Positions 16,043 to 59,231 of a stretch of 64,000 nt of DNA are shown here, in pieces (the stretch's first letter is position 1; the number at the start of each line of letters is the position of its first letter). Source of the DNA: Catenuloplanes niger (GTDB lineage: Bacteria; Actinomycetota; Actinomycetes; Mycobacteriales; Micromonosporaceae); NCBI RefSeq assembly GCF_031458255.1, contig NZ_JAVDYC010000001.1, forward strand, positions 6,395,001 through 6,459,000, written 5' to 3'. The position numbers and the translations under genes were made by a program. Below the pieces are notes generated by a model. The model ran no database searches, was not told where the DNA came from, and was given only the letters and a program-made list of their open reading frames with translations.

Positions 16043-17119
16043 CTACAGCGTGACCACGGTGCGGGCGCCCTCGCCGCGGCTCATCCGGGCGAACGCCGCG
16101 GGCGCGTCGTCCAGCGTGGCGTGATGGGTGACGAGCGGGCGCAGGTCCAGGGAACCGTCCAGCACCGCGGCCGCCAACCGGGGGATCTCCACGTCGAAGT
16201 CGGCCGAGCCGTAGACGCAGCCGCGCAGCGTCCGGCCGGAGTGGAACAGTTCCAGCGCGGAGAGTTCCACGATGTCCGACCGCGCGCCCATGCCGACCAC
16301 GACCACCCGGCCGCCCCGGCGCGCACCGCGGTAGGCGGCCCGGATCGTCGCGGCCCGCCCCACGCACTCGACCACCACGTCCGCGCCGCGCCCGCCGGTC
16401 AGCCCGCGCAGCGCCCTGCTCAGCGTGTCGTCCGAGAGCAGGAAGTCCGTCGCGCCCGCGGCCAGCGCCAGCTTCTCCTTCTCGGGCGACACGTCGATCG
16501 CCACGATCGGCCCGGCCCCGGCCGCGCGCGCGGCGCCGACCACGGACAGGCCCACGCCGCCCAGGCCGAGCACCGCCACGGACTCGCCGGGCCGCACGCC
16601 CGCGGTGTTGCGCACCGCGCCGAAGCCGGTCAGCACCGCGCAGCCGAGCAGCGCCGCGTCCGCGAACGACAGCGCGTCCGGCACCGGCACGGCGGCCCGC
16701 GCGGGGATCACCACGCGCGTGGCCAGCGCGCCCAGTCCCAGCGTGACGTGCAGCGGCGTGCCGTCCGGCAGGGTGCCGCGCGGGGTGGACGGGGCACCCG
16801 CGTTCTCGCACAGCCAGGGCTCGCCGTGGGTGCAGTGCCAGCACGCCCGGCACGGCGGCGCCCAGTTCAGCACCACCCGGTCGCCGGCGCGCATGCGTTC
16901 CACGCCCGGGCCGGCCGCGACCACCGTTCCGGCCGCCTCGTGGCCGAGGACCAGCGGGAACGACGGCGCGAGCGTGCCGTTGACCATGGACAGGTCGGAG
17001 TGGCAGACGCCGGCCGCGCCGATCTCCACCTCGATCTCACCCGGGCCGGGCGGATCGAGGCGGAACTCTTCCACGGTCAGCTCGGCGCCGCGCGCGACCA
17101 GGCCGCGGGCCGCGATCAC
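16043..17119 (-). CDS. Zinc-dependent medium-chain alcohol dehydrogenase
   Basis: 358 residues. Catalytic zinc ligands are seen in GVCHSDLS (Cys) and LGHEAAG (His-Glu). The structural zinc lobe is [15 protein letters not shown] with its four cysteines. The NAD(P) fold is [27 protein letters not shown], where the Asp after the fingerprint favours NAD. The gene begins inside the last codons of the upstream aldehyde dehydrogenase (4-nt overlap 17116-17119), so the two are translationally coupled and probably convert an alcohol to an acid in two steps. The substrate is unknown. The operon promoter carries a TetR-type palindrome. Confidence 0.92.
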
Positions 17120-18522
17120 CGCTGGATGGCCTTCGTCTCGAGGAACTCGGCCAGGCCGTGCGGGCCGAGCTCGCGGCCGAGGCCGGAGCGCTTGTAACCG
17201 CCGAACGGGGCGAGCGGGTTGAACCGGCCGCCGTTGATGTCGACCTGCCCGGTGCGCATCCGCCGGGCGACCCGCAGCGCGCGTTCCTCGTCACCGGACC
17301 AGACGCCGCCGGCCAGCCCGTACCGCGAGTTGTTCGCGATCGCGACCGCCTCGTCGTCGTCCGCGAACGGGATGATCGACAGCACCGGGCCGAAGATCTC
17401 CTCCTGGGCCACGGTCGCGTCCGGTGTCACGTCGGCCAGCACGGTCGGCGCCACGAAGTGGCCGGTCGGCGGGACGGTCGCGTCGAGCCCGCCGGTGGTG
17501 AGCCGGGCGCCCTCGGCGAGCCCCTTCGCCACGTACCCCCGGACCCGGTCCTTCTGGTTGCGGGAACTGAGCGGCCCGAGCCGCGTGCCCTCGGCGAAGG
17601 GGTCGCCGAGCGGATATCCGGCGGCGGTCGCGGTGGCCAGCTCGATCGCGGCCGGGTAGAGCGAGCGGTGCACGAGCATGCGCGTCCAGGCGGTGCAGGT
17701 CTGGCCGGAGTTGAGGAACGCGTTGCCGACGCCGACCTTGACCGCCCTCGTCAGGTCCGCGTCGGAGAGGATCACGTTCGCCGACTTGCCGCCCAGCTCC
17801 AGCGCCACCCGGGCGATCCGGTCCGCGGCCAGGTGGCTGATCCGGGCGCCGACCGCGGTCGAGCCGGTGAACGAGACCATGTCCACGTCCGGGTGGGCCG
17901 CGATCGCCTCGCCGACCACCGGGCCGGTGCCGGTGACCAGGTTGACCACGCCCGGCGGCAGGCCGGCCGCGTCGATCGCGTCGAAGAGCAGGTACGCCAC
18001 CAGCGGGGTGACCTCGCTCGGTTTGAGCACCACGGTGCAGCCGGCGGCCAGCGCGGGCGCGAGCTTGGCCACCACCTGGTGCAACGGATAGTTCCACGGG
18101 GTGATCGCGCCGACCACGCCGATCGGCTCGCGGACCACGGTGGAGTTGCCGATCGTCTCCTCCGGCAGCGCTCGCGCGGCGAGATCCGCGAAACTGCGCA
18201 GCACGGCCAGCGGCAGCCCGGCCTGCACCGCGGTCGCCACCTTCATCGGCGTGCCGAGCTCGCGCGCGACCGTGCGGGCGATCTCGTCGGCCCGGCCGGC
18301 CAGCACGGTGTGCAGCTTGTCCAGGTGGGCGGCGCGCTCGGCCGGGTCCGCGGCCGACCAGGCCGGGAACGCGCGCCGGGCCGCGGCCACCGCGCGGTCG
18401 ACGTCCTCGGCGGTGCCGGCCGGGACGTGGTCGATGATCGTCTCGTGGGTCGGGTCCTCGACCGGGATCGTGTCCCGGCCGGCCGGTGCGACCCAGGCGC
18501 CGTCGATGTAGAAGCGGTCCAT
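17116..18522 (-). CDS. NAD(P)-dependent aldehyde dehydrogenase
   Basis: 468 residues from the ATG at 18522, preceded by AAGGGG. Canonical ALDH features are [24 protein letters not shown], the cofactor loop [11 protein letters not shown], the general base in [13 protein letters not shown], the catalytic Cys276 in [11 protein letters not shown] and [13 protein letters not shown] near the C-terminus. The start lies only about 32 bp from a 19-bp palindrome (18554-18572) that recurs upstream of the TetR gene, so repression by that regulator is likely. It is the first gene of the ALDH-ADH operon. Confidence 0.93.
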
Positions 18523-49864: not shown

Positions 49865-50851
49865 TCAGAGCCCCAGGACCAGGTCGCGCACGTCGGCCGC
49901 GCAGCCCCAGGACAGGCTGACACCGGCGCCGCCGTGCCCGTAGTTGTGCACCACGTGATGCCCGCCGACCAGCTCGTGCTCCACCCGCACCGGATCACGG
50001 ACGGGCCGGATGCCGATGCGGTGCCCGAGCACCGGCAGCTCCGCGATCCGCGGGTCGATGCGGGCGCAGCGGGCGATGATCCCGGCGGCGATACGGGCGT
50101 CCTCGTCCACGTCGGCCCGGCCGATCTCGGCGCTTCCTCCGAGGACCAGCAGTGGTCCCTGCGGCAGCAGATACGTCATCTCCCGGGGAGCATCGTCATG
50201 GGTCATTCCCGGTGGGCCGCCGAGGTGCTCGGCGAAGAATTCCTCGATGCCCGGGTTCTCCACAATGACGAGCTGGCCCCGGATCGGTGTGACGCGCGAG
50301 TCCGGGACGAATTCCGCCGCGCCCGGTCCGGTGCAGTTGATCACGATCGGAGCCTCACCGGCGACGGCAGCCAGGCTGGGTGCGTGCCCGATGGAAATCG
50401 TTCCGCCGGCCGCCTTCAGTCTGTGCTGTAGGTATTCGAGGTAGACCGGCATGTCGACGACCGGGGCGTGATATCTCCAGCCGGTGACGAAACCGGGCGG
50501 CAGATCGTCGGGGTCACAGCGCCGGAACCCTGGCAACGTCGTCACGTGGGTCGGCGGTGTGGCAGGCACGCGGGTGGCCTCCATGCCATCGAGCACGTGG
50601 ACACCCGCGTCCGGCGCGTTCCGGGCGAGGCTGGTGAGAGTCCGGTAGGTGACATCTGTCCACGGTCGGATCCGCTCATGCGAGGCATACAACGGATCCC
50701 AGATCGCCCCTGCGGCGTAGGACGTGGATTCCAGCGCCGGCGCTGCGGTGCGGATGCGGACGTCCATCCCGGCTTCCGCGAGGAGTGCCCCGGTGGTGAG
50801 GCCGGCTACACCGGCGCCAATGATCAAGACTTCCGCGCGAACGCTGGTCAT
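49865..50851 (-). CDS. FAD-dependent D-amino-acid oxidase family protein
   Basis: 328 residues from the ATG at 50851. FAD fold at the start: AEVLIIGAGVAGLTTGALLAEAGMDVRI. DAAO features: SYAAGAIWDPLYAS, an active-site region with VDMPVYLEYLQHRL, INCTGPGAAEFV, PIRGQLVIVENPG, TYLLPQGPLLVLGG and the C-terminal GHRIGIRPVRDPVRVE and VVHNYGHGGAGVSLSWGCA. It oxidatively deaminates D-amino acids, or a related glycine-type substrate. It is divergent from the SCO2521-type gene with 188 bp between them; there is no evidence that it belongs to that cluster. Confidence 0.9.
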   Translation of the reverse strand: MTSVRAEVLIIGAGVAGLTTGALLAEAGMDVRIRTAAPALESTSYAAGAIWDPLYASHERIRPWTDVTYRTLTSLARNAPDAGVHVLDGMEATRVPATPPTHVTTLPGFRRCDPDDLPPGFVTGWRYHAPVVDMPVYLEYLQHRLKAAGGTISIGHAPSLAAVAGEAPIVINCTGPGAAEFVPDSRVTPIRGQLVIVENPGIEEFFAEHLGGPPGMTHDDAPREMTYLLPQGPLLVLGGSAEIGRADVDEDARIAAGIIARCARIDPRIAELPVLGHRIGIRPVRDPVRVEHELVGGHHVVHNYGHGGAGVSLSWGCAADVRDLVLGL

Positions 50852-51039
50852 CCCGTCACGGTAGACGGGCATCGCACAATTTCGACCGCGGACATTCACA
50901 ATTTATCCGTTGATATCGCGATCACAGGAAGATCGTGTTCTGAGATTTCCTCGGAATGGAGCAGTAAACCCGCAAGGGGGCGTTGCGATGTCAACACGGA
51001 GTGGGGTGCAATCGGAGGGCCTGCGCGATTAAGGAATCG

Positions 51040-51951
51040 ATGTTGATCCTCGGAGAGATTCATACCGGACTGTTGCGTCACCCCACCTCGGTCACCACGG
51101 GTGTGGCACGGGACCTGCTCGACCTGGTCGCCGGTGAACCGGTGCGGGTGTCCGAGCGGCCGATCTCCTGCGCGTGGTCACCCGACCTGATCACCGGCGT
51201 GGACTGCCCGCTCGCCGGCACGTCCGGCCGGGCCGTCGGGACGGTCCGGCACTGCGCCGTCCTCACCGGCGGCTGCGTGGTGCAGGCGTCGGCGTACACG
51301 ACGGTCGATCCCGCGACCGAGGCGCGGCGCCTGCCGTGGTCGCACTACATCTCGCGCCCCGGCCACGTGGAGGTGCTGGCGAAGACGCCGCCGGCCGGCC
51401 TCGCCGACGCCTTCCTGGCCGGCGAGCGCGGGCCGGGCGCGCTCGACCTCGGCGGCATCTGCGCCCGCACGATCGACCGGGTGCAGGCCTCGCCGCGGCT
51501 CGACCGGCGGGTGGCGCTCCGGGTGCCGCGCACCCGGTTCCGCTGGGCCGCCACCGTGGGGCCGGACCGGGTGGACCTGCTGGTCGACGACGGTGACCTG
51601 CGCACGCTTCGGCTCGCGCTGCCCGAGCTGCCGGCCGGCCGGATCGCCGACCTGTGCGCGGACATCGCACGGCACGACTGGCTGCTCAGCTCGCTGATCG
51701 AGGTGATCGGCGCGAGCGCGCTCGGCGTCCGGGCCCGAGAGGAGACGCTGCCCCGGCTGGCCCCGGCGATTGACACGCTGCTCCACCTGTGGATGCCCGC
51801 GGCCCGGCTGGACGGCGGAATGGCTGCGGTCTGGGAGTCGCTGGAGCTGCGGCCCGGCTTCACCCGGCAGTGGGAGACGCTGGTCGCCCGCATCCGCGAC
51901 CAGCTCTCGGTCGGCACGGTCGAGGCACTGTCGGCCGGGGTGCGTGTCTGA
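51040..51951 (+). CDS. SCO2521-family protein
   Basis: 303 residues; the ATG at 51040 follows AAGGA. The sequence MLILGEIHTGLLRHPTSVT opening, with SWDPDLITGVDCPLAG-like and ARTIDRVQASPRLDRRVALRVPR segments, is what I know from the SCO2521 family, which travels with SCO2522-SCO2525 in Streptomyces and relatives. No enzymatic motif is seen; it looks like a mixed alpha/beta soluble protein. It is coupled to the next gene by a 1-nt overlap (TGATG). The rest of the family cluster runs convergently on the other strand (52876-57387). Function unknown. Confidence 0.8.
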   Translation: MLILGEIHTGLLRHPTSVTTGVARDLLDLVAGEPVRVSERPISCAWSPDLITGVDCPLAGTSGRAVGTVRHCAVLTGGCVVQASAYTTVDPATEARRLPWSHYISRPGHVEVLAKTPPAGLADAFLAGERGPGALDLGGICARTIDRVQASPRLDRRVALRVPRTRFRWAATVGPDRVDLLVDDGDLRTLRLALPELPAGRIADLCADIARHDWLLSSLIEVIGASALGVRAREETLPRLAPAIDTLLHLWMPAARLDGGMAAVWESLELRPGFTRQWETLVARIRDQLSVGTVEALSAGVRV

Positions 51952-52892
51952 TGCAGGCCACGGTCCGAAATCGCGTCGTACGGACGGCTGTCGTAGCAGT
52001 CGTCGTGGGGGCCTTCACCTACCTGGTCACCGACTATCTGAACCAGCCGCAGGCACTCGCGATCACGCTGTCCATTCTCATCGGAAGCGTGACGTTGATC
52101 AGTCAGTTCCTGATCGAGTTCGAGCAGCGGCTCGCGGCCGTCGAGCAGTCCGTGCAGAGCAATGCGCTGAGCATGAAGAACTCGATGCGCGACTCTTTCT
52201 CAAAGATCAATGAAGCGACCGACCTGTTCGCGCGGGTCGAGGCCTCCCCGTTACCGACCGATCTCGTCACACAACTGGTCCGGGACGCGACGCAGATAGC
52301 GACGGACTCGCCGCCGCTCGTGTACGACTTCTTCACGCAGGAGATCACGAGAACGTCCGACGTCCTGCGGAAACTCGGCAGGGGCGGTGAGGTGACCTAC
52401 GACGGTGAGGATCGCGACTGGCTGCTCGGCCTCACTCGTCACGCGCGCATCGGCATCGACGCGATCAGCCTGACCCTGGTGGACCGGGGGTTGTGGACCA
52501 GCGAGATCGGTCAGCGCTACCTACAGGTCCAGCACAGCGCCGTGGAGCGGGGAGCGGTGGTCCGCCGCATTTTTGTGATCGACCGCCCCAGCGACGGCAT
52601 CGACCCCGAGGTGCGTGAGGCGTGCGAGGCGCAGAGCCGGATCGGCATCAGGGTCCGACTGCTCGACCGCACCCGAATTCCCGCTACGCTGCGCGTGTTC
52701 GGACTCGGCTTCATCGTCTTCGACGATCTGCTGAGCTACGAGATCATCGCGCCCGCACCGCTGGAGGACACGGCCCGTTCGACGATCGCGGAGACTCGGC
52801 TGTCGCTGCTTCCCACCCGGGTGCGCGACCACGCCCGGATCTACCGGGAGCTGTGGGAGCTGGCGTCCGAGATGCCTACGCCCGTGAGGTGA
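51951..52892 (+). CDS. Two-TM coiled-coil membrane protein of the SCO252x cluster
   Basis: 313 residues. Two TM helices at about 9-28 and 35-57 are followed by a short coiled coil (EQRLAAVEQSVQSNALSMKN). The soluble C-terminal domain has RIFVIDRPSDGIDPEVREAC and then LRVFGLGFIVFDDLLSYEII, a pattern reminiscent of phospholipase-D-like/effector-control domains but without HKD motifs. Only this gene and the SCO2521-type gene are on the plus strand; its last 17 bp overlap the end of the convergent SCO2522-type gene. I do not recognise a named family. Codon use is a little less G+C-rich than that of its neighbours. Confidence 0.65.
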   Translation: MQATVRNRVVRTAVVAVVVGAFTYLVTDYLNQPQALAITLSILIGSVTLISQFLIEFEQRLAAVEQSVQSNALSMKNSMRDSFSKINEATDLFARVEASPLPTDLVTQLVRDATQIATDSPPLVYDFFTQEITRTSDVLRKLGRGGEVTYDGEDRDWLLGLTRHARIGIDAISLTLVDRGLWTSEIGQRYLQVQHSAVERGAVVRRIFVIDRPSDGIDPEVREACEAQSRIGIRVRLLDRTRIPATLRVFGLGFIVFDDLLSYEIIAPAPLEDTARSTIAETRLSLLPTRVRDHARIYRELWELASEMPTPVR

Positions 52893-53847
52893 AGACGTAG
52901 TCGATGCGGTCGACGACCTCGGCCGGCAGCGGGATGCCCTCCGCGGCCGCGCGCGCCGCGACCTGCTCGGCCACGTCGCGCTGGACCGCCACCTGGCTCA
53001 GGATCACCCGTACCGCGGTCTCGATCTCGATGAACCGGGTGTCCAGCACCGAGGCGGTGCGGAACGCGGCGAACGGCGCGGCCCGCGGCTCCCACTGGAT
53101 CACGGCCGGCATCTCGTGCCAGGACGCCGGCAGGTCCGCGCGGGTGGCCGGTTCCGGTCGCCAGACCGGCTCGCCGTGGTCGCGCAGCAGGCCCAGCCGG
53201 AGCAGCTGCCAGACCGCGGCCAGGAACGGGCACGCCCACAGCCGGCCGGTCTTGCGCTCCTGCCAGATCTCCACGTCGACGTAGATCGAGTGGTTCTTCA
53301 CCGCGTTCTGCCGGGGCGGTTGCCAGCCGCGGGCCGCGTCCATCGCCTCGGACGCGGCCGTGCCGGTGGACGGCGGCTCCCCGTTGGCCAGCCAGCCGCT
53401 CTGGTGCGTGGGCGGGCGGGAACCGTTCGTGCCGCGCGGCGGGTCGGCGACCAGCCGGCCCTCCACGATGCGGGCCACCTCGACGCCGTCCGCGGTCGCG
53501 CACGCGGACTCGCGCGCGATGTAGTCGATCCGCAGGCCGGCCTCGTCCGCGGCGGCGGCCAGCTCCGGGAGCACGTCGGCGGGCGAGCCGAACGGCGCGA
53601 AGTAGTCGTCGATCAGGAAGCAGGTGCTGATCCGGGTGGCCTGGCCGGGACGGCTGTCCGCCTCCATCCGGCGCAGCGCGTCCGCCCACGGCCGGACCCG
53701 GCGGAACTGCGCGCGCAACCGCTCCGGCCCGGCCGCGAAGTCCTCCATGTAGAGGTGGCCCAGCTCGATCGAGAGGTGGGCGAGCGGCGTCGACCGTACC
53801 CTCGGCGTCGCGGTCGTCTCGGTGTAGGTCACCTCCGGGACGGTCAC
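52876..53847 (-). CDS. SCO2522-family protein
   Basis: 323 residues from the GTG at 53847, which overlaps the P-loop gene's stop as GTGA (4 nt). Family-like segments: HLSIELGHLYMEDFAAGPERL, RISTCFLIDDYFAPFGSPAD, IDYIARESACA, then ENHSIYVDVEIWQERKTG-type and WACPFLAAVWQLLRLGLLRD in the second half. STCFLIDDYF is the most conserved-looking block, with two adjacent Asp that could bind a metal (inference). The C-terminus contains a helical repeat ending RIDYVFTSRA. The enzymatic function, if any, is unknown. Last gene of the minus-strand operon. Confidence 0.8.
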   Translation of the reverse strand: MTVPEVTYTETTATPRVRSTPLAHLSIELGHLYMEDFAAGPERLRAQFRRVRPWADALRRMEADSRPGQATRISTCFLIDDYFAPFGSPADVLPELAAAADEAGLRIDYIARESACATADGVEVARIVEGRLVADPPRGTNGSRPPTHQSGWLANGEPPSTGTAASEAMDAARGWQPPRQNAVKNHSIYVDVEIWQERKTGRLWACPFLAAVWQLLRLGLLRDHGEPVWRPEPATRADLPASWHEMPAVIQWEPRAAPFAAFRTASVLDTRFIEIETAVRVILSQVAVQRDVAEQVAARAAAEGIPLPAEVVDRIDYVFTSRA

Positions 53848-54761
53848 AGGCCCTCCCAGGCGGTGTCGTCGACGATCCGCTTCGCCAGCGCGTCGAGCGC
53901 GTCCACGGTCTGCTGGTTGGCCGCGTGCCGCTCCCACACGTCGCCGTCCGTGAGCAGCTGCTCGCGCCACTGCAGCACCGGGTCGAGCGGGATCTGGCCG
54001 AGCATCAGCGTGCGCCCGACCCGCTCCCGGGCGGCCTGCCGCTGCAGCTCCTGGTTGCACGCGTCCACCCAGGCCAGCTGCTCGGGGCGGAGCCCGGCGT
54101 AGTCCGGCGACCTCGGGTCGACCACCGCGGTCCGCACGAAGCGCACCGAGTTCGCCAGCTGCCGGGGGTCGTGGCCGCGGTCCTCGCCGATCCGCAGGAT
54201 GCCCCGGGCACCGTAGACCAGGCTCGCCGCGGCGCCGATGTGCTGGCTGGTCCACCGGTGGAAGACCAGCCACCGGTGCCGCAGATGTGCCAGCTCGGCG
54301 CGCGCGGTCGCGGCCAGCGCGATGTCGATCGCGTACGACCGGCCCGCGCTCAGGTCGATCAGGCAGAGGTCGAACTCCTCATCCAGCCGGAGGAACAGCT
54401 CCGCGCACCGGTCGACGATCTCACCGGTCGACGCGAACTCACCGCCGCCGGCGTCGCCCGGGTAGAGCATCAGCCGGCCCGCCCCGGCCGGCCGGCTGCG
54501 CAGGCTCGGCCGCTGCGACTCGGTCCACACGTTCAGCCGGCGCGGCGACGCGCTCTGGCCGCGCAGGTAGGAGTGCATGCCGTCGAACTCCACCCCGGCC
54601 TGCGCCGCCGAGATCTGGAAGATCGCGCCCGCGGTCGGCGAGCCGAAGTCGAAGTCGAGGTAGCAGGCGTCGCCGCCCTGCAACGCGTGCCGGTAGACCA
54701 CGTTGCTGCTGGTCACCGAGCGTCCGGTGCCGCCCTTGTCGGACGTGGCGAAAACGAGCAT
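53844..54761 (-). CDS. SCO2523-family variant P-loop ATPase (MinD/ParA-like)
   Basis: 305 residues. It starts LVFATSDKGGTGRSVTSSNV: a deviant Walker A like that of ParA/MinD (KGGTGK), except that the usual second lysine is Arg (KGGTGRS). Switch/Walker B region: FDLCLIDLSAGRSYAIDIAL. The ATG is 1 nt from the stop of the SCO2524-type gene upstream, and its end overlaps the SCO2522-type gene, so expression is tightly coupled. ParA-like proteins use ATP-dependent dimerisation to position cargo on membranes or DNA; whether the Arg variant hydrolyses ATP is open. Confidence 0.82.
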   Translation of the reverse strand: MLVFATSDKGGTGRSVTSSNVVYRHALQGGDACYLDFDFGSPTAGAIFQISAAQAGVEFDGMHSYLRGQSASPRRLNVWTESQRPSLRSRPAGAGRLMLYPGDAGGGEFASTGEIVDRCAELFLRLDEEFDLCLIDLSAGRSYAIDIALAATARAELAHLRHRWLVFHRWTSQHIGAAASLVYGARGILRIGEDRGHDPRQLANSVRFVRTAVVDPRSPDYAGLRPEQLAWVDACNQELQRQAARERVGRTLMLGQIPLDPVLQWREQLLTDGDVWERHAANQQTVDALDALAKRIVDDTAWEGL

Positions 54762-54762
54762 G

Positions 54763-56613
54763 TCACACCGGCTCGGCGGTGGCCTCGCGCGCGGCGGCGA
54801 GGCGGTCGAGCCGGATGAGCACGTCCTCGGCCAGCGCCTTGGCGCTGCCCGGCCGCTGCCGCAGGATCCGGCGGGCGCGCTGGAGCTGGCGGTTGACCTG
54901 TTCCAGCTCGGTGCGCAGCCGTTCGCCGCGCTGCGCGAGACCGTTGAGCTGCTCCTGGTCGTACAGGTGCTCGGCCTCGATCAGCAGGTCGGCGGCGATG
55001 TCGGTGAGCCGCTCGCTGCGCGGTGGCGAGCTGCGGATCACCTGGGCGGCCTGGATCAGGCAGTCGACCACGCGCTTCGTGTAGTACCAGGAGGGGAGCG
55101 TGTGCGTGACGTCGAGGTCGAACACCCGGGACGGGTCGTCCCACAGGTTCGCGGCGCGGTCGTCGGTCAGCCGGCGGTCGGTGAGGTGCCGCCACACGTC
55201 GCCGGCCAGCGACGTGGCGCTCTGCCGGGCCGCGTTGTCGGAGAGCAGGCCGGCGAGGTGCACCGTGCGCTTGAGCAGCACCGGCGCGAAGTCCGACGCG
55301 ACCCACCCGAGCTGCGGCCCGCCGACCTTCTCGCTGCCGACCAGCAGGAAGGTCTCACCGGGACGGTGCAGGCGGATCGCCGGGTCATCCGCGAACGGGC
55401 GGCGGGTGATCCGGCTGCGGTTGGCCAGTTCGTCCAGTACGGTGCCGACCCGGGCGAGGTCGGCGTCGGACGCCCGTCGGGTGATCAGGTCCTGCATCAC
55501 CATGCCGCTGATCAGCAGGCTGAAGTAGTCGGACTGCTGACCGTCGGTCGCAGCCCATGGAAGATCTTCCAGCGGCCATCGGCCCGAGCCGAATGTCGCG
55601 ATGACGGACCAGTACGACTGGGTGAGATCCCAGCGCAGCTGCAACGCCTGCGCGAGGCGCAGCTGCTCCTCGTTGAGCAGGCCGAGCAGCCGGGTGCGCT
55701 CGGAGAACAGCGACCGGATAGCGTCGAGCGCGACCACCGTGAAATACAGGTACGGCTTCGGCTCGGCCACGCCGGCGGGCTGCCGCCCGATCTGGTCCTT
55801 TCCCTCGATCGGTGGCGCGTTCTCCACCAGGCCCCAGGACCATCCGCACTCGAACAGCCGGTGCGGGTTGTCGAGCAGGCTGCCCTCCTCGGCACCGGAA
55901 CCGATCGTGACGTCGTCCCGGAGGCGGGCGTTGATCTCCCGCAGCGAGAGCCGGAGCTGTTCCACGACCTGCCGCTCCGGCAGCCGGCTCTGATTGGTGG
56001 TCTTCAGCAGTTGCCGGCCCTGCTCGTCGCTGGTGTCGAAGACGTTGACCGCGAAGCTGCGCAGCAGGCCGACCATGGCGGCGGTGAGCCGGGTGCCGGC
56101 CATCTGCTCGAGCCGGTCGACCTGCTGCCGCAGCGTCTCCCGGGTGACCACCGCGCGGAACGTCTTGGCGAAACCGATCGTCGCGAGCATCAGCGTCACC
56201 GAGATCGAGAACGAGTCGACCACGTCGAGACCGCGCTGTTCGGGTTTGATCTCGTCGACCGCGCTCGGGTCGGCCGCGGTGAAGTACGTGTCGCCGGCGA
56301 ACACCGGCGTGCCGTCCGGCGCGGTGTACTTCTCCAGGTACTCCGTGATCAGCTGGACCAGCCGTCTCGGCACCTCGAGGTGATCGCCGAGCGCGGCCAG
56401 CGAGCCGATGACGTCGTCCTCGGTCTCGTCCGGCCGGTCGATGCGGAACGTGGGCACGTCCGCGGCCGGTGACATGATGCAGAGCAGCTGCTCCGCGTCA
56501 CTGATCGAGTTGCTGCCGTCGCGACCGCCCCAGCGCCACTCGGCACCGCCACCGGAGTAGCTGGCGAATGCCCGCCAGACCTCCAGAAGGTGCTGGCGAG
56601 GTTGGACATCCAT
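54763..56613 (-). CDS. SCO2524-family protein
   Basis: 616 residues. No catalytic motif is visible. N-terminus VWRAFASYSGGGAEWRWGGR, DGSNSISDAEQLLCIMSPA and VPTFRIDRPDETEDDVIGSL is the part I associate with the SCO2524 family. The rest is mostly helical, with a Gln/Arg-rich C-terminal helix (ELEQVNRQLQRARRILRQRP) likely to form a coiled coil. It is the largest protein of the cluster and may be a scaffold (inference). Its start lies 9 bp from the methyltransferase stop, and its stop is next to the P-loop gene start. Confidence 0.8.
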   Translation of the reverse strand: MDVQPRQHLLEVWRAFASYSGGGAEWRWGGRDGSNSISDAEQLLCIMSPAADVPTFRIDRPDETEDDVIGSLAALGDHLEVPRRLVQLITEYLEKYTAPDGTPVFAGDTYFTAADPSAVDEIKPEQRGLDVVDSFSISVTLMLATIGFAKTFRAVVTRETLRQQVDRLEQMAGTRLTAAMVGLLRSFAVNVFDTSDEQGRQLLKTTNQSRLPERQVVEQLRLSLREINARLRDDVTIGSGAEEGSLLDNPHRLFECGWSWGLVENAPPIEGKDQIGRQPAGVAEPKPYLYFTVVALDAIRSLFSERTRLLGLLNEEQLRLAQALQLRWDLTQSYWSVIATFGSGRWPLEDLPWAATDGQQSDYFSLLISGMVMQDLITRRASDADLARVGTVLDELANRSRITRRPFADDPAIRLHRPGETFLLVGSEKVGGPQLGWVASDFAPVLLKRTVHLAGLLSDNAARQSATSLAGDVWRHLTDRRLTDDRAANLWDDPSRVFDLDVTHTLPSWYYTKRVVDCLIQAAQVIRSSPPRSERLTDIAADLLIEAEHLYDQEQLNGLAQRGERLRTELEQVNRQLQRARRILRQRPGSAKALAEDVLIRLDRLAAAREATAEPV

Positions 56614-56622
56614 CCCGGCTGC

Positions 56623-57387
56623 TCACTTCCTGTGAGACGCGCTGCCTCTACCCGCGAAACCCGTTACGACGATCATTCCTTTGTAGCCGTCGCGGAGTGT
56701 CGTGTCGTCCACCGTGTGGACACTGACATTATGGGTCAGCCCCGCAACGCAGCGCTCGATGTCGTACTCGTCCACGGCCAGCGCGGGAAACTCCAGCGCG
56801 CCGACCTGGTAACCCTGGGAATCCTTCATGAAGGCGGCGGCAAATGGGGCGAACCGCTTCAGCGAGCCCAGGAAGTTGCGAGTGGCCCGTTCGAACTCGT
56901 GCCGGTTCTGCGTGATCGACTCGGCGACGAAGAACATCGTCCCCATGTCGAACGCGCCGTCCTGCGGCAGTGTGAAGACATTGCCGGCGACGATCTCGGT
57001 GCGGCCGCTGATCGCGGTGCTGGGATCAGTGATCACGTCGTAGGCCGGGCGGCCGGTGCGCAGCCGAGCGGTGAATTCGGCCCAGATCGGGCTGGGTGAC
57101 GCCTGCTGGCGCGCGAGCCACGCGCGGTTCGTGCGCGCCCGCTCGAACAGCGTCACCCGATCGGCCCAGGGCAGCATGGACAGCGCGGGGTAGAGATTCG
57201 CGCCGGTGCCGACGTCGATCGCACGGCCGTGCCGGCGCAGCTGGGATGAGGAGAAGAACGCGCCGAGATGATCAATAATTTCGGCGTCAGCTCGCCGGAC
57301 GCTGTCATAGTTATGCGTGAAGTAGAAGTCAGAGTCGAATGCATCCCATGCCCACTCCGAATTCGACCGAGTCTGCGCATCAGTCAT
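56623..57387 (-). CDS. SCO2525-family SAM-dependent methyltransferase
   Basis: 254 residues from the ATG at 57387 (MTDAQTRSNSEWAWDAFDSD). SAM-binding motif I: AIDVGTGANLYPALSMLP, followed by acidic strand VTLFERARTNRAWLARQ and EIVAGNVFTLP. FDMGTMFFVAESITQNRHEF is the catalytic-side motif. First gene of the minus-strand operon methyltransferase - SCO2524 - P-loop - SCO2522. The SD-like GAGGGAG lies about 12 nt before the ATG, a rather long spacing. The target of methylation (protein, lipid or small molecule) is unknown. Confidence 0.82.
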   Translation of the reverse strand: MTDAQTRSNSEWAWDAFDSDFYFTHNYDSVRRADAEIIDHLGAFFSSSQLRRHGRAIDVGTGANLYPALSMLPWADRVTLFERARTNRAWLARQQASPSPIWAEFTARLRTGRPAYDVITDPSTAISGRTEIVAGNVFTLPQDGAFDMGTMFFVAESITQNRHEFERATRNFLGSLKRFAPFAAAFMKDSQGYQVGALEFPALAVDEYDIERCVAGLTHNVSVHTVDDTTLRDGYKGMIVVTGFAGRGSASHRK

Positions 57388-57837
57388 GACTGACTGTAAC
57401 TCCCTCGTTGGGCTGAGTATTTGCCCTTGGTTTGTGCTCGTTTCCGGCAAATCGACGAGGCTCGTTCGTGGAGCGTCTCTGTGGCGCGGAGTGGGCAACG
57501 AATCTGTGACTGTCGCGTGGTGTATTGCCCGGCGGCGTGGACAGAATGCCTCGATTGTACGCCATCCGGGGGGTCGGCTCATGGATTGCGGCCGGTCGAT
57601 CGTCTTGCTGATCGGTGCTATCGGGTGGGTTCGGTCGGCGGGATTCAGCTTGCCAATTCATGATCTTCGGGAGTGCTCGCGGGTGATCTGGTTCAATTTT
57701 GCTGGTGGAGTCACCCCTGCTGGACGGACGTCGGCCGAATCCGCCGTGGACGTGATGCGGGTGGAGGTCTAGCGTCGGCATTGACCGGAATCGCTTGCCG
57801 CACTTCTAATCGATCTTCGATGACGGGATGGCCGCAG
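57388..57837. promoter_or_regulatory. Divergent promoter region, SCO252x operon and P450
   Basis: About 450 bp between the divergent methyltransferase and P450 genes. It is visibly richer in A+T than the genes on either side (for example TTGCCAATTCATGATC at about 57650). Open frames on both strands through it (57386-57772 plus, 57380-57781 minus) have poor codon bias and no domain, so I take them as non-coding. It most likely contains both promoters. No clear palindrome longer than 6 bp was noticed. Confidence 0.6.
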
Positions 57838-59034
57838 ATGACCGCTCCGCACCTCCGGACCACGCGCACCTGCCCGTTCGCCCCACCCGAGGAGCACGAG
57901 CGGCTGCGCGACCAGGAGACGCCGACGAAGGTCACCATGCCGAACGGGGAGCAGGCCTGGGCGCTCGGCCGGCTCGACCACGTCCGCGCGATGCTGTCCG
58001 ACCCGCGGTTCAGCTCCAACCGCTGGCTCCGCGGCTTCCCCACGCTCACCAAGGACCGCCCGCAGGACGTGCCCGGCCGGCACGCGCGGCGTACCCCGCT
58101 GGTGATGATGGACCCGCCGGAGCACGGCGAGGCCCGGCGCGCCGTCGTCGGCGAGTTCACCGTCCGGCGGATGGAGGCGCTGCGCCCGCGGATCCAGCGG
58201 ATCGTCGACGACCACATCGACGCGATGCTCGCCGGGCCGAACCCGGCCGACCTGGTCACGGCGCTGTCCCTGCCGGTCCCGTCGCTGGTGATCTGCGAGC
58301 TGCTCGGCGTGCCCTACGGGGACCACGACTTCTTCCAGACGTCCTCCGCCACGCTGCTCAGCCTGACCGCGCCGGCCGAGGAGCGCGCGGCCGCGGCCGA
58401 GGCGCTGCACGTCTACCTGGCCGGCCTGATCGCGCGGCGCCGCGAGCAACCGGGCGACGACCTGCTCAGCCGGCAGCTCGCCACGTCGGACGACGTCGAG
58501 GCGCTGGTCTCGCTCGGGTTCCTGCTGCTGCTCGCCGGCCACGAGACCACCGCGAACATGATCTCCCTCGGCGTGGTGGCGCTGCTCGACCACCCCGACC
58601 AGCTCAAGGCGATCACCACGGACCCGTCCCGGACGCCGGCCGCGGTCGAGGAGCTGCTGCGCTACTTCACGATCGCGGAGTTCGCCACGTCCCGGGTCGC
58701 GCGGGAGGACGTCGAGCTGGGCGGCGTGCTGATCCGCGCCGGCGAGGGCGTGGTCACGCTCGGCAACGCGGCGAACCGGGACCCGGCCGCGTTCCCGCAC
58801 GGTGCCGAGCTGGACGTCGAGCGCGGCGCGCGGCACCACATCGCGTTCGGCTTCGGCGCGCACCAGTGCCTGGGCCAGAACCTCGCCCGCCTGGAGCTCC
58901 AGATCGTCTTCGACACGCTGTTCCGCCGCGTCCCGAGCCTGCGCCTGACCGAGCCCGCGGACGGCCTGCCGTACAAGGACGACGCGACGGTCTACGGCCT
59001 CTACCGCCTGCCGGTCACCTGGGACGCGCCATGA
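57838..59034 (+). CDS. Cytochrome P450
   Basis: About 398 residues; the ATG at 57838 gives MTAPHLRTTRTCPFAPPEEH. Motifs: I-helix LLLLAGHETTANMIS, K-helix ExxR in VEELLRYFTIAEFATSR, and the heme-thiolate loop FGFGAHQCLGQNLARLEL with the cysteine ligand. A bacterial class I monooxygenase that receives electrons from the ferredoxin encoded immediately after it (4-nt overlap). The substrate is unknown; PFAPPEEHERLRDQETPTKVTMPNG at the start resembles CYP105/CYP107-like actinomycete enzymes of secondary metabolism or xenobiotic oxidation. Confidence 0.95.
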   Translation: MTAPHLRTTRTCPFAPPEEHERLRDQETPTKVTMPNGEQAWALGRLDHVRAMLSDPRFSSNRWLRGFPTLTKDRPQDVPGRHARRTPLVMMDPPEHGEARRAVVGEFTVRRMEALRPRIQRIVDDHIDAMLAGPNPADLVTALSLPVPSLVICELLGVPYGDHDFFQTSSATLLSLTAPAEERAAAAEALHVYLAGLIARRREQPGDDLLSRQLATSDDVEALVSLGFLLLLAGHETTANMISLGVVALLDHPDQLKAITTDPSRTPAAVEELLRYFTIAEFATSRVAREDVELGGVLIRAGEGVVTLGNAANRDPAAFPHGAELDVERGARHHIAFGFGAHQCLGQNLARLELQIVFDTLFRRVPSLRLTEPADGLPYKDDATVYGLYRLPVTWDAP

Positions 59035-59231
59035 CGAAGATCCACGCGGACACGAGCCGGTGCATCGGCGCTGGTCAGTGCGTGCTGACCGACCCGGACG
59101 CGTTCGACCAGGACGACGCGGCGGGCATCGTGATCGTCCTGCGTCCCGAGCCGCCGGACGACGCGGCGGTCACGCGCGCCCGGCAGGCGGTCCTGATCTG
59201 TCCCAGCCAGGCGCTGTCGTTGGAGCAATGA
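59031..59231 (+). CDS. 3Fe-4S ferredoxin, redox partner of the P450
   Basis: 66 residues. Cysteine pattern SRCIGAGQC (Cys-x5-Cys) and later LICPSQAL (Cys-Pro) gives three ligands, as in single [3Fe-4S] ferredoxins that serve actinomycete P450s. The start ATG overlaps the P450 stop (ATGA), so the two are coupled. No reductase gene is adjacent; a distant flavoprotein must supply electrons. Confidence 0.95.
   Translation: MTKIHADTSRCIGAGQCVLTDPDAFDQDDAAGIVIVLRPEPPDDAAVTRARQAVLICPSQALSLEQ

What the first reader, a model, noticed from the sequence alone, without database searches (positions are those of the whole stretch)
51040..57387. SCO2521-SCO2525 type gene cluster: a candidate undescribed membrane/ATPase/methyltransferase system
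Two facing operons hold a SCO2521-type protein, a two-TM coiled-coil protein, a SCO2522-type protein, a ParA/MinD-like P-loop protein with a variant Walker A, a 616-residue SCO2524-type protein and a SAM methyltransferase. Four of the minus-strand genes are packed with 1- to 10-bp spacings or overlaps, and the two operons end on each other with a 17-bp overlap. Conservation of the same set in Streptomyces implies one machine, yet no biochemical function is known to me. The mix of a positioning-type ATPase, a membrane protein and a methyltransferase would suit a polarly localised complex, or a defence or signalling device. The family names are from memory; the functional idea is inference.
Basis: partly seen in the sequence, partly recalled or inferred. 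Interest (0 to 1): 0.85.

Follow-up and report, generated by a model that had tools for sequence, protein, structure and literature searches.

The report
MinD-like core with swappable amine-enzyme modules
A four-protein machine of unknown function, found in many filamentous soil bacteria and built round an unusual MinD-type ATPase, is kept as a block while the membrane protein, immune-type ATPases and amine-modifying enzymes beside it are exchanged, which suggests a modular signalling or self-defence device rather than a cell-positioning machine.

Summary
In detail: five genes match the NCBIfam SCO2521-SCO2525 families above cut-off, and spacings and the 17-bp tail overlap are as stated. The interpretation needs redrawing. 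The constant part is four proteins, SCO2521-2524: SCO2522 and SCO2524 co-occur in 83 genomes of 150, with one exception each way. SCO2523 has Arg for the P-loop Lys in 110 of 110. SCO2522 has a confident model without a solved relative; SCO2524 weakly resembles (alpha/alpha) toroids. SCO2525 already has a published growth/development role. Best reading: an ATPase-centred signalling core with exchangeable outputs acting on an amine or D-amino acid. No function is shown; anti-invader immunity is the main rival; polar positioning has no support.

The parts
49865..50899 (-). D-amino-acid-oxidase-type FAD oxidase (P0007; likely real start ATG at 50851), divergent from SCO2521 with 188 bp between
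Evidence: Pfam DAO 104 bits; PDB D-amino acid oxidases, best E 1e-36. DAAO in 67 of 110 core loci; within 12 kb of SCO2524 in 46 of 84 core-positive genomes (hits of 187 bits or more).
51040..51951 (+). SCO2521 family protein, 303 aa, no hydrophobic segment of TM kind, fold unknown
   Evidence: NCBIfam NF040565 343.5 bits; no PDB sequence relative; present in 106 of 110 loci.
51951..52892 (+).
   Evidence: Hydrophobic segments near residues 9 and 33; DUF6879 in 41 of 47 members; beside SCO2521 in 83 of 110 core loci.
52876..53847 (-). SCO2522 family protein, 323 aa, probable enzyme or ligand binder of unknown fold
   Evidence: NF040566 467 bits; model pLDDT 89; best PDB fold match E 0.18; invariant His, Glu, Asp, Arg, Cys over 47 sequences.
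53844..54761 (-). SCO2523 MinD/ParA-like P-loop protein with Arg in place of the P-loop Lys (KGGTGRS)
   Evidence: NF040564 487 bits; K9, R14, D38, D136 invariant in 32 aligned sequences; KGGTGR[ST] in 110 of 110.
54763..56613 (-). SCO2524 family protein, 616 aa, mostly helical, weak (alpha/alpha) toroid resemblance
   Evidence: NF040567 889 bits; model pLDDT 92.7; Foldseek sugar epimerase/isomerase and glycosidase toroids with prob. up to 0.96 but E 0.026 and up; the lowest E-value (0.0017) is a different helical protein, Nro1.
56623..57387 (-). SCO2525 SAM-dependent methyltransferase, NNMT/PNMT/TEMT-like, 254 aa
   Evidence: NF040568 288 bits; 7 of 7 relatives tested exceed the Pfam NNMT_PNMT_TEMT cut-off, the window protein is just under it; family profile matches solved NNMT, PNMT and INMT, E 1e-8 to 7e-6.

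Best explanation
This is a two-layer system of filamentous actinobacteria. Layer one is a constant core of four proteins (SCO2521-2524) built round a MinD-type P-loop protein that probably binds nucleotide but, with Arg for the P-loop Lys, probably acts as a slow or non-hydrolysing switch. Layer two is an exchangeable output set: a membrane-anchored DUF6879 protein, whose place beside SCO2521 can be taken by a NACHT ATPase, and small-molecule enzymes that act on amino groups (the N-methyltransferase-like SCO2525, and a D-amino-acid oxidase or a GNAT acetyltransferase). I infer that the core reads a state of the cell or its wall and gates the membrane/STAND output, while the enzymes make, tune or remove an amine or D-amino-acid ligand, the output being growth restraint or a developmental decision. 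Shown by computation: composition, co-occurrence, exchange, families. Inferred: complex formation, switching, the ligand and the output.
For: Core: SCO2523, 2524, 2522 and 2521 in 110, 110, 107 and 106 of 110 loci (loci were chosen by SCO2524); SCO2524/SCO2522 83-1-1-65 of 150 genomes. Exchange beside SCO2521: TMcc 83, NACHT 14 of 110. On the SCO2524 tree the 13 NACHT-HEAT loci fall in one 14-row clade (support 100; the other row not assessable), and a separate NACHT-FGE sits inside Planotetraspora, whose other five members here have TMcc. The output set moves as a unit: TMcc+SCO2525+DAAO together away from the core in four core-positive genomes (L139, L175, L176, L177); DAAO-NACHT-SCO2525 (L080) and NACHT-SCO2525-DAAO (L083) in a row. 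Dependence: SCO2525 over its cut-off in 0 of 66 core-negative genomes; GNAT 35/38 against 1/161. Substitution: of 110 loci DAAO alone 66, GNAT alone 24, both 1 (L087, adjacent there), neither 19; the one core-positive genome of the Streptomyces-type genus without a GNAT-model hit (G475) has a DAAO between SCO2523 and SCO2522. Amine chemistry. Growth/development role of SCO2525 in S. coelicolor: passages in PMC11472566 and PMC6344877.
Against: No ligand, complex or biochemical activity is shown. The DAAO subfamily also lives apart from the system: 17 of 66 core-negative genomes of the family and 127 of 199 of the Streptomyces-type genus, where it was near the core in only two, G475 and G603. 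DAAO and GNAT are confounded with lineage: all 25 GNAT loci lie in one 27-row half of the tree (that fork has weak support, 54), and G603 has both a distant GNAT and a DAAO within 8 kb. NACHT does not always replace TMcc: G386 (= L041) has NACHT at the core and TMcc about 325 kb away. 19 of 110 loci have neither DAAO nor GNAT, 48 of 110 lack SCO2525 within reach. Weaker SCO2525-like methyltransferases do occur in core-negative genomes.
Confidence: 0.38

Rival explanations
1. An anti-invader (abortive-infection type) conflict system: the MinD-like core is a switch held off, and NACHT/STAND or membrane DUF6879 proteins are effectors that kill or stall an infected hyphal compartment.
For: A constant core with an NTPase plus variable effectors, STAND NTPases, FGS domains and inactive MinD/ParA-like domains are features listed for conflict systems of multicellular bacteria (PMC7159879, passages and part 1 of section 35). 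NACHT-HEAT and NACHT-FGE beside SCO2521. In L178 (G401) a P-loop protein with C-terminal TPR stands where SCO2524 should be. One of the 80 loci (L055) lies on a contig titled plasmid.
Against: No PADLOC match for the six proteins of the finding, one NACHT-HEAT or the NACHT-FGE protein. No SCO2524 relative in the scan of 2.9 million viral contigs or in 72,556 plasmid records. The SCO2524 tree mostly groups Streptomyces-type, Frankia, Streptosporangiaceae and Micromonosporaceae rows separately (exceptions such as L089 and L058), and the loci keep common neighbours within groups, unlike fast-moving defence islands. Published developmental role of SCO2525.
Confidence: 0.27
2. A biosynthetic cluster: SCO2522, SCO2524 (toroid enzyme), SCO2525, GNAT/DAAO make a small amine-containing metabolite or hormone, and the membrane protein exports or senses it.
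For: Three small-amine enzyme families; SCO2524 weakly resembles sugar epimerases and glycosidases; SCO2522 has many invariant polar residues.
Against: SCO2525 and DAAO/GNAT are optional while the core is not; a MinD-like protein and NACHT ATPases are not expected in a pathway; fold evidence for SCO2524 is weak (toroid matches from E 0.026 up; best E belongs to another fold).
Confidence: 0.2
3. A polar or septal positioning apparatus.
For: MinD/ParA fold, membrane protein, growth/development phenotype in a hyphal organism.
Against: P-loop Lys replaced in 110 of 110; amine-metabolism enzymes and STAND ATPases are unexplained; no MinC/MinE/ParB-like partner recognised (not searched for).
Confidence: 0.08

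Closest known systems
NTP-dependent conflict systems of multicellular bacteria (Kaur et al. 2020, eLife, PMC7159879)
   Same: Constant core containing an NTPase plus variable partners that include STAND ATPases and an FGE/FGS domain; inactive MinD/ParA-like domains occur there; hosts here are mainly filamentous.
   Different: None of that paper's core modules (MoxR-vWA, DO-GTPase, VMAP) was seen in the core proteins scanned; the core is four unrelated families; inheritance looks mainly vertical; small-amine enzymes accompany it.
NCBIfam SCO2521, SCO2522, SCO2523, SCO2524, SCO2525 families (NF040565, NF040566, NF040564, NF040567, NF040568)
   Same: The five window proteins exceed the curated cut-offs.
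   Different: The family names give no role; TMcc/DUF6879, DAAO, GNAT and NACHT partners are not part of them.
MinD/ParA ATPases and KGGVGR-motif variant AAA ATPase (NF047398)
   Same: Deviant Walker A with first Lys, DFDFG and Walker B Asp kept; 31.7 bits to NF047398.
   Different: P-loop Lys is Arg; the score is far below NF047398's cut-off of 90.
SCO2525 as a development gene (Gehring et al. 2004, J Bacteriol; not held, known from citing passages)
   Same: Same gene family.
   Different: The passages read concern one gene in S. coelicolor; they do not describe a system round it.

Membership tests
SCO2521-SCO2525 NCBIfam families | Score over each curated cut-off over nearly the full model | tested here: met
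   5 of 5.
MinD/ParA P-loop ATPases | Deviant Walker A signature Lys (first K of KGG), DxD switch I, Walker B Asp | tested here: met
   K9, D36, D38, D136 invariant in 32 sequences (motif roles recalled); MinD/Mrp structures by profile, E 1e-5 to 2e-3.
MinD/ParA P-loop ATPases | P-loop Lys (KGGxGK[ST]) | tested here: not met
   KGGTGR[ST] in 110 of 110 (three further loci there: KGGTGRS, KGGACRS, KGGTGRT). KGG.GK[ST] in 6 of the 8 CbiA-family loci of the same genome that were held, no motif found in the other 2 (15 matches in the genome).
MinD/ParA P-loop ATPases | ATP binding and hydrolysis, dimerisation | not testable with these tools
   -
D-amino-acid oxidase | Full-length DAO domain, FAD motif, substrate Arg and C-terminal HNYGHGG signature | tested here: met
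   the Arg of RPVR and one active-site Tyr align with porcine DAAO (residue roles recalled); the second Tyr is not evidently kept.
NNMT/PNMT/TEMT small-amine methyltransferases | Pfam PF01234 gathering score | tested here: inconclusive
   7 of 7 relatives scanned pass; the window protein is just under (22.0 against 25). Substrate untested.
(alpha/alpha) toroid sugar enzymes (SCO2524) | Significant fold match | tested here: inconclusive
   About 21 of the 50 listed Foldseek matches are toroid enzymes (fold assignment recalled), prob. up to 0.96, but none has E <= 0.001 and the lowest E (0.0017) is Nro1, another helical fold.
Conflict systems of PMC7159879 | Constant NTPase core with variable effectors, varying even between close relatives | tested here: met
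   NACHT-FGE in one Planotetraspora, TMcc in five others. That these are effectors is inference.
Conflict systems of PMC7159879 | A described core (MoxR-vWA, DO-GTPase, VMAP, etc.) | tested here: not met
   No such Pfam/NCBIfam hit in the window's core proteins or in 50 SCO2524 and 47 SCO2522 family members scanned against Pfam.
Conflict systems of PMC7159879 | Extensive lateral transfer | tested here: inconclusive
   SCO2524 tree mostly follows organism groups; common neighbours within groups; no formal reconciliation; one locus on a contig titled plasmid (L055).
Known anti-phage systems | PADLOC model hit | tested here: not met
   none for the core, SCO2525, TMcc or two NACHT proteins; DAAO has only a short FAD-motif hit (27.7 bits).

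The most novel reading that the evidence does not exclude
A new kind of bacterial self-monitoring device in which a MinD-fold pseudo-switch with three families of unknown mechanism couples D-amino-acid/amine chemistry (a by-product of cell-wall turnover) to interchangeable membrane DUF6879 or NACHT ATPases, deciding growth, lysis or differentiation in hyphae.
Probability: 0.22. Interest if true: 0.87.

Novelty: new variant of a known kind. Interest (0 to 1): 0.62.

Why it matters
The five families carry locus-tag names and, in what I could read, no role. Separating a strict four-protein core from an optional output set, and finding the oxidase/acetyltransferase partner and the NACHT substitution, turns an open question into direct tests: which amine, which trigger, which output. 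If the output is an immune-type ATPase in some lineages and a membrane protein in others, it links development of filamentous actinobacteria with STAND-type death or defence machinery. Two of the proteins (SCO2521, SCO2522) have no solved relative detectable here.

Tried and rejected
Rejected or corrected. (1) Natural SCO2521-TMcc fusion in L048: the join is a run of N in the assembly, left out of the SCO2521 and TMcc alignments. (2) A second long plus-strand family (c130) in L036 and L149: shadow frames of a NACHT gene on the other strand. (3) 'DAAO is always dedicated': false, it is common in genomes without the core; its neighbours there (S15 peptidase, GH9, GH39, alkyl sulfatase, an unidentified regulator-like protein) differ between genomes. 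(4) 'NACHT replaces TMcc' as a general rule: false for G386. (5) My first reading, that two genomes of the Streptomyces-type genus lack GNAT and have DAAO at the core: after fetching, G603 has a more distant GNAT beside TMcc and its DAAO is further off; only G475 stands. (6) One search counted L147 as having another slot protein; none is clear there, so the tally is TMcc 83, NACHT 14, other two-TM 6, none or unclear 3, not assessable 4. L067 and L083 were entered as NACHT by hand. (7) Distance correlations between components are all positive and confounded by kinship; not used. (8) Viral fold library for SCO2524: no match with E <= 0.001. (9) Literature: searches gave three papers that name SCO2521-2525 and no paper with DUF6879; this holds for the library only. 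(10) PADLOC, NCBIfam and Pfam scans: 12 of 12 used; SCO2521 relatives were not scanned as a family.

Biases. Presence near the core depends on flanks of about 10 kb and on contig ends. In one search I used only DAAO hits of 187 bits or more. Fisher tests treat genomes as independent, which they are not. The SCO2524 tree is a quick one with long branches that meet.


Full report
WHAT IS THERE. Seven genes lie between 49865 and 57387. On the minus strand run SCO2525, SCO2524, SCO2523 and SCO2522 with spacings of 9 bp, 1 bp and a 4-bp overlap; on the plus strand SCO2521 and a two-TM protein share one base; the two runs end on each other with a 17-bp overlap. Five proteins exceed the cut-offs of the NCBIfam SCO2521-SCO2525 families. 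The two-TM protein (here TMcc) has two hydrophobic segments near its start (two in 33 and one in 14 of 47 members), and its C-terminal part is DUF6879, seen in 41 of 47 members. None of the six proteins of the finding matches PADLOC; the oxidase has only a short FAD-motif hit there.

SPREAD. In a genus that I take for Streptomyces 39 of 199 have a match, 38 over the cut-off. In a phylum-wide draw it is in 5 of 296. In genome contigs 363 stretches encode a relative, of which 80 were kept; one of these (L055) is on a contig titled plasmid. No relative was found in the scan of viral contigs or in the plasmid records.

CORE AND VARIABLE PARTS. I mapped 110 loci with SCO2524: 80, the window, and 29 fetched by choice. 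SCO2523 is in 110, SCO2522 in 107, SCO2521 in 106. The test that does not depend on locus choice is the whole-genome one (150 genomes): SCO2524 and SCO2522 together in 83, one alone each way, neither in 65. The odd genomes are G334 (no SCO2522) and G401, where SCO2523, SCO2522 and SCO2521 are present and a P-loop protein with C-terminal TPR stands in the place of SCO2524. SCO2525 over its cut-off is in 47 of 84 core-positive and 0 of 66 core-negative genomes. Weaker SCO2525-like methyltransferases do occur without the core, in both groups.

THE PLACE BESIDE SCO2521. It holds TMcc in 83 of 110 loci, a NACHT ATPase in 14, another two-TM protein in 6, nothing clear in 3, and cannot be judged in 4 (with L147 corrected). 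Of the 14, 13 are NACHT-HEAT by a profile of my own, one of them short (L083); Pfam confirmed NACHT and HEAT in L041, L036, L149 and L083, with DUF4062 in the first three. One is NACHT-FGE (L067). On a quick SCO2524 tree the 13 lie in one 14-row clade with support 100, the other row being not assessable, so that exchange is probably one event. The NACHT-FGE locus lies among Planotetraspora whose other five members have TMcc, a second event. The output genes travel together: TMcc, SCO2525 and DAAO form an island away from the core in G330, G352, G386 and G406 (L139, L175, L176, L177), and NACHT keeps the same company in L080 and L083.

THE OXIDASE AND THE ACETYLTRANSFERASE. A DAAO of the window's type is in 67 of 110 loci and within 12 kb of SCO2524 in 46 of 84 core-positive genomes. 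The window's own genome has the linked copy, two distant ones (41 and 36% identity) and a fragment, so this closeness is far beyond chance. The gene is seen in several arrangements: divergent from SCO2521 (window), convergent with TMcc (for example L037), just upstream of SCO2524 (L089, L090), in the island, beside the GNAT (L087), and between SCO2523 and SCO2522 in G475. It is not exclusive: 17 of 66 core-negative genomes have it, and in the Streptomyces-type genus it is common (127 of 199) but near the core in only two, G475 and G603. There a GNAT acetyltransferase is the partner: 35 of 38 core-positive against 1 of 161 core-negative genomes at E <= 1e-25. Of the three misses, G603 and G607 have a more distant GNAT beside the core (G603 also a DAAO within 8 kb), and G475 has no GNAT-model hit but the DAAO inside the core locus. 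Over the 110 loci DAAO occurs alone in 66, GNAT alone in 24, both in 1, neither in 19. All 25 GNAT loci are in one half of the tree, so I claim functional substitution only as likely.

WHAT THE PROTEINS ARE. SCO2523 is a MinD/ParA fold; the first Lys, DFDFG and Walker B Asp are invariant in 32 sequences, and the P-loop Lys is Arg in 110 of 110. SCO2525 is related to nicotinamide, phenylethanolamine and indolethylamine N-methyltransferases. SCO2522 has a confident model (pLDDT 89), no PDB fold match better than E 0.18, and invariant His24, Glu28, His31, Arg72, Asp81, Asp108, Arg112, Glu113, His186 and Cys206 over 47 sequences, which suggests an active or binding site. SCO2524 (pLDDT 92.7) is mostly helical; about 21 of 50 listed Foldseek matches are (alpha/alpha) toroids of sugar epimerases, isomerases and glycosidases (fold assignment recalled) with probability up to 0.96, but E 0.026 and up, and the lowest E-value (0.0017) belongs to Nro1, a different helical protein with a poor TM-score, so the toroid is a lead, not a result. 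Sixteen Trp, Arg, His and Asp positions checked are identical in 50 of 50 sequences. SCO2521 has no relative in the PDB by sequence and was not modelled.

PRIOR KNOWLEDGE. [quoted passage not shown] as a HrdB target with a morphogenetic role (PMC6344877, passage); and as a SAM-dependent methyltransferase mutated earlier (PMC3017869, passage). The primary source named in the first of these, Gehring et al. 2004, was not held. The nearest thematic kin are the constant-core, variable-effector systems of PMC7159879 (passages and part 1 of section 35 read).

MECHANISM. Shown: composition, co-occurrence, exchange. Inferred: that the four core proteins form a complex gated by SCO2523; that TMcc or NACHT is the output; that SCO2525 with DAAO or GNAT acts on a common amine or D-amino acid. 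I put 0.38 on this reading, 0.27 on anti-invader immunity, 0.20 on a biosynthetic role and 0.08 on polar positioning.

Noticed in passing
window 57828-59231 (+): A cytochrome P450-like gene followed by a small ferredoxin-like gene lies just beyond SCO2525 (recognised by eye from the translations).
   Followed up: no
Upstream of SCO2524 in L037, L046, L049-L051, L054, L057, L059-L067, L069, L070, L072-L074, L082, L084: In most of these Streptosporangiaceae loci a D-2-hydroxyacid dehydrogenase (c5, 25 loci in all, two of them L087 and L164 of other groups) and an acetolactate-synthase-like ThDP enzyme (c7, 23 loci in all, one of them the core-less L142; named by eye) are neighbours; both would act on 2-oxo acids, the product of a DAAO.
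   Followed up: partly
L030:16886-17983 (+): A DUF7638-DUF7639-NADAR protein lies directly after the DAAO and before a second TMcc-SCO2525 pair.
   Followed up: no
L178:3644-6256 (+): An 870-aa protein with a P-loop (GRAGVGKTE) and C-terminal TPR overlaps the start of SCO2523 where SCO2524 normally lies; STAND/AP-ATPase identity is my inference.
   Followed up: partly
L172:5756-7027 (+): Inside the core locus of G475, on the opposite strand, a 423-aa protein looks by eye like a GNAT domain joined to several TM segments; no PDB match and no hit to my GNAT model, so unconfirmed.
   Followed up: partly
G296, G371 and G385: SCO2524 appears in two or three separate pieces, so some copies may be frame-shifted or decaying.
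   Followed up: no
L089:14712-15533 (-), L097:13702-14814 (-): The protein beside SCO2521 ends in two hydrophobic segments with a loop NPLGFGDI in L089 (NPMDVPEL in L097); ion-channel nature is only a guess, no PDB match for L097.
   Followed up: partly
L026:3025-11836 and 17062-18015: Tandem TMcc-SCO2525 pairs plus a second SCO2524 and a second DAAO in one Paractinoplanes locus.
   Followed up: no
L171 (G000:C1:9543224-9543607): A second, unlinked stretch with 28% identity to the TMcc C-terminal part in the window's own genome.
   Followed up: no
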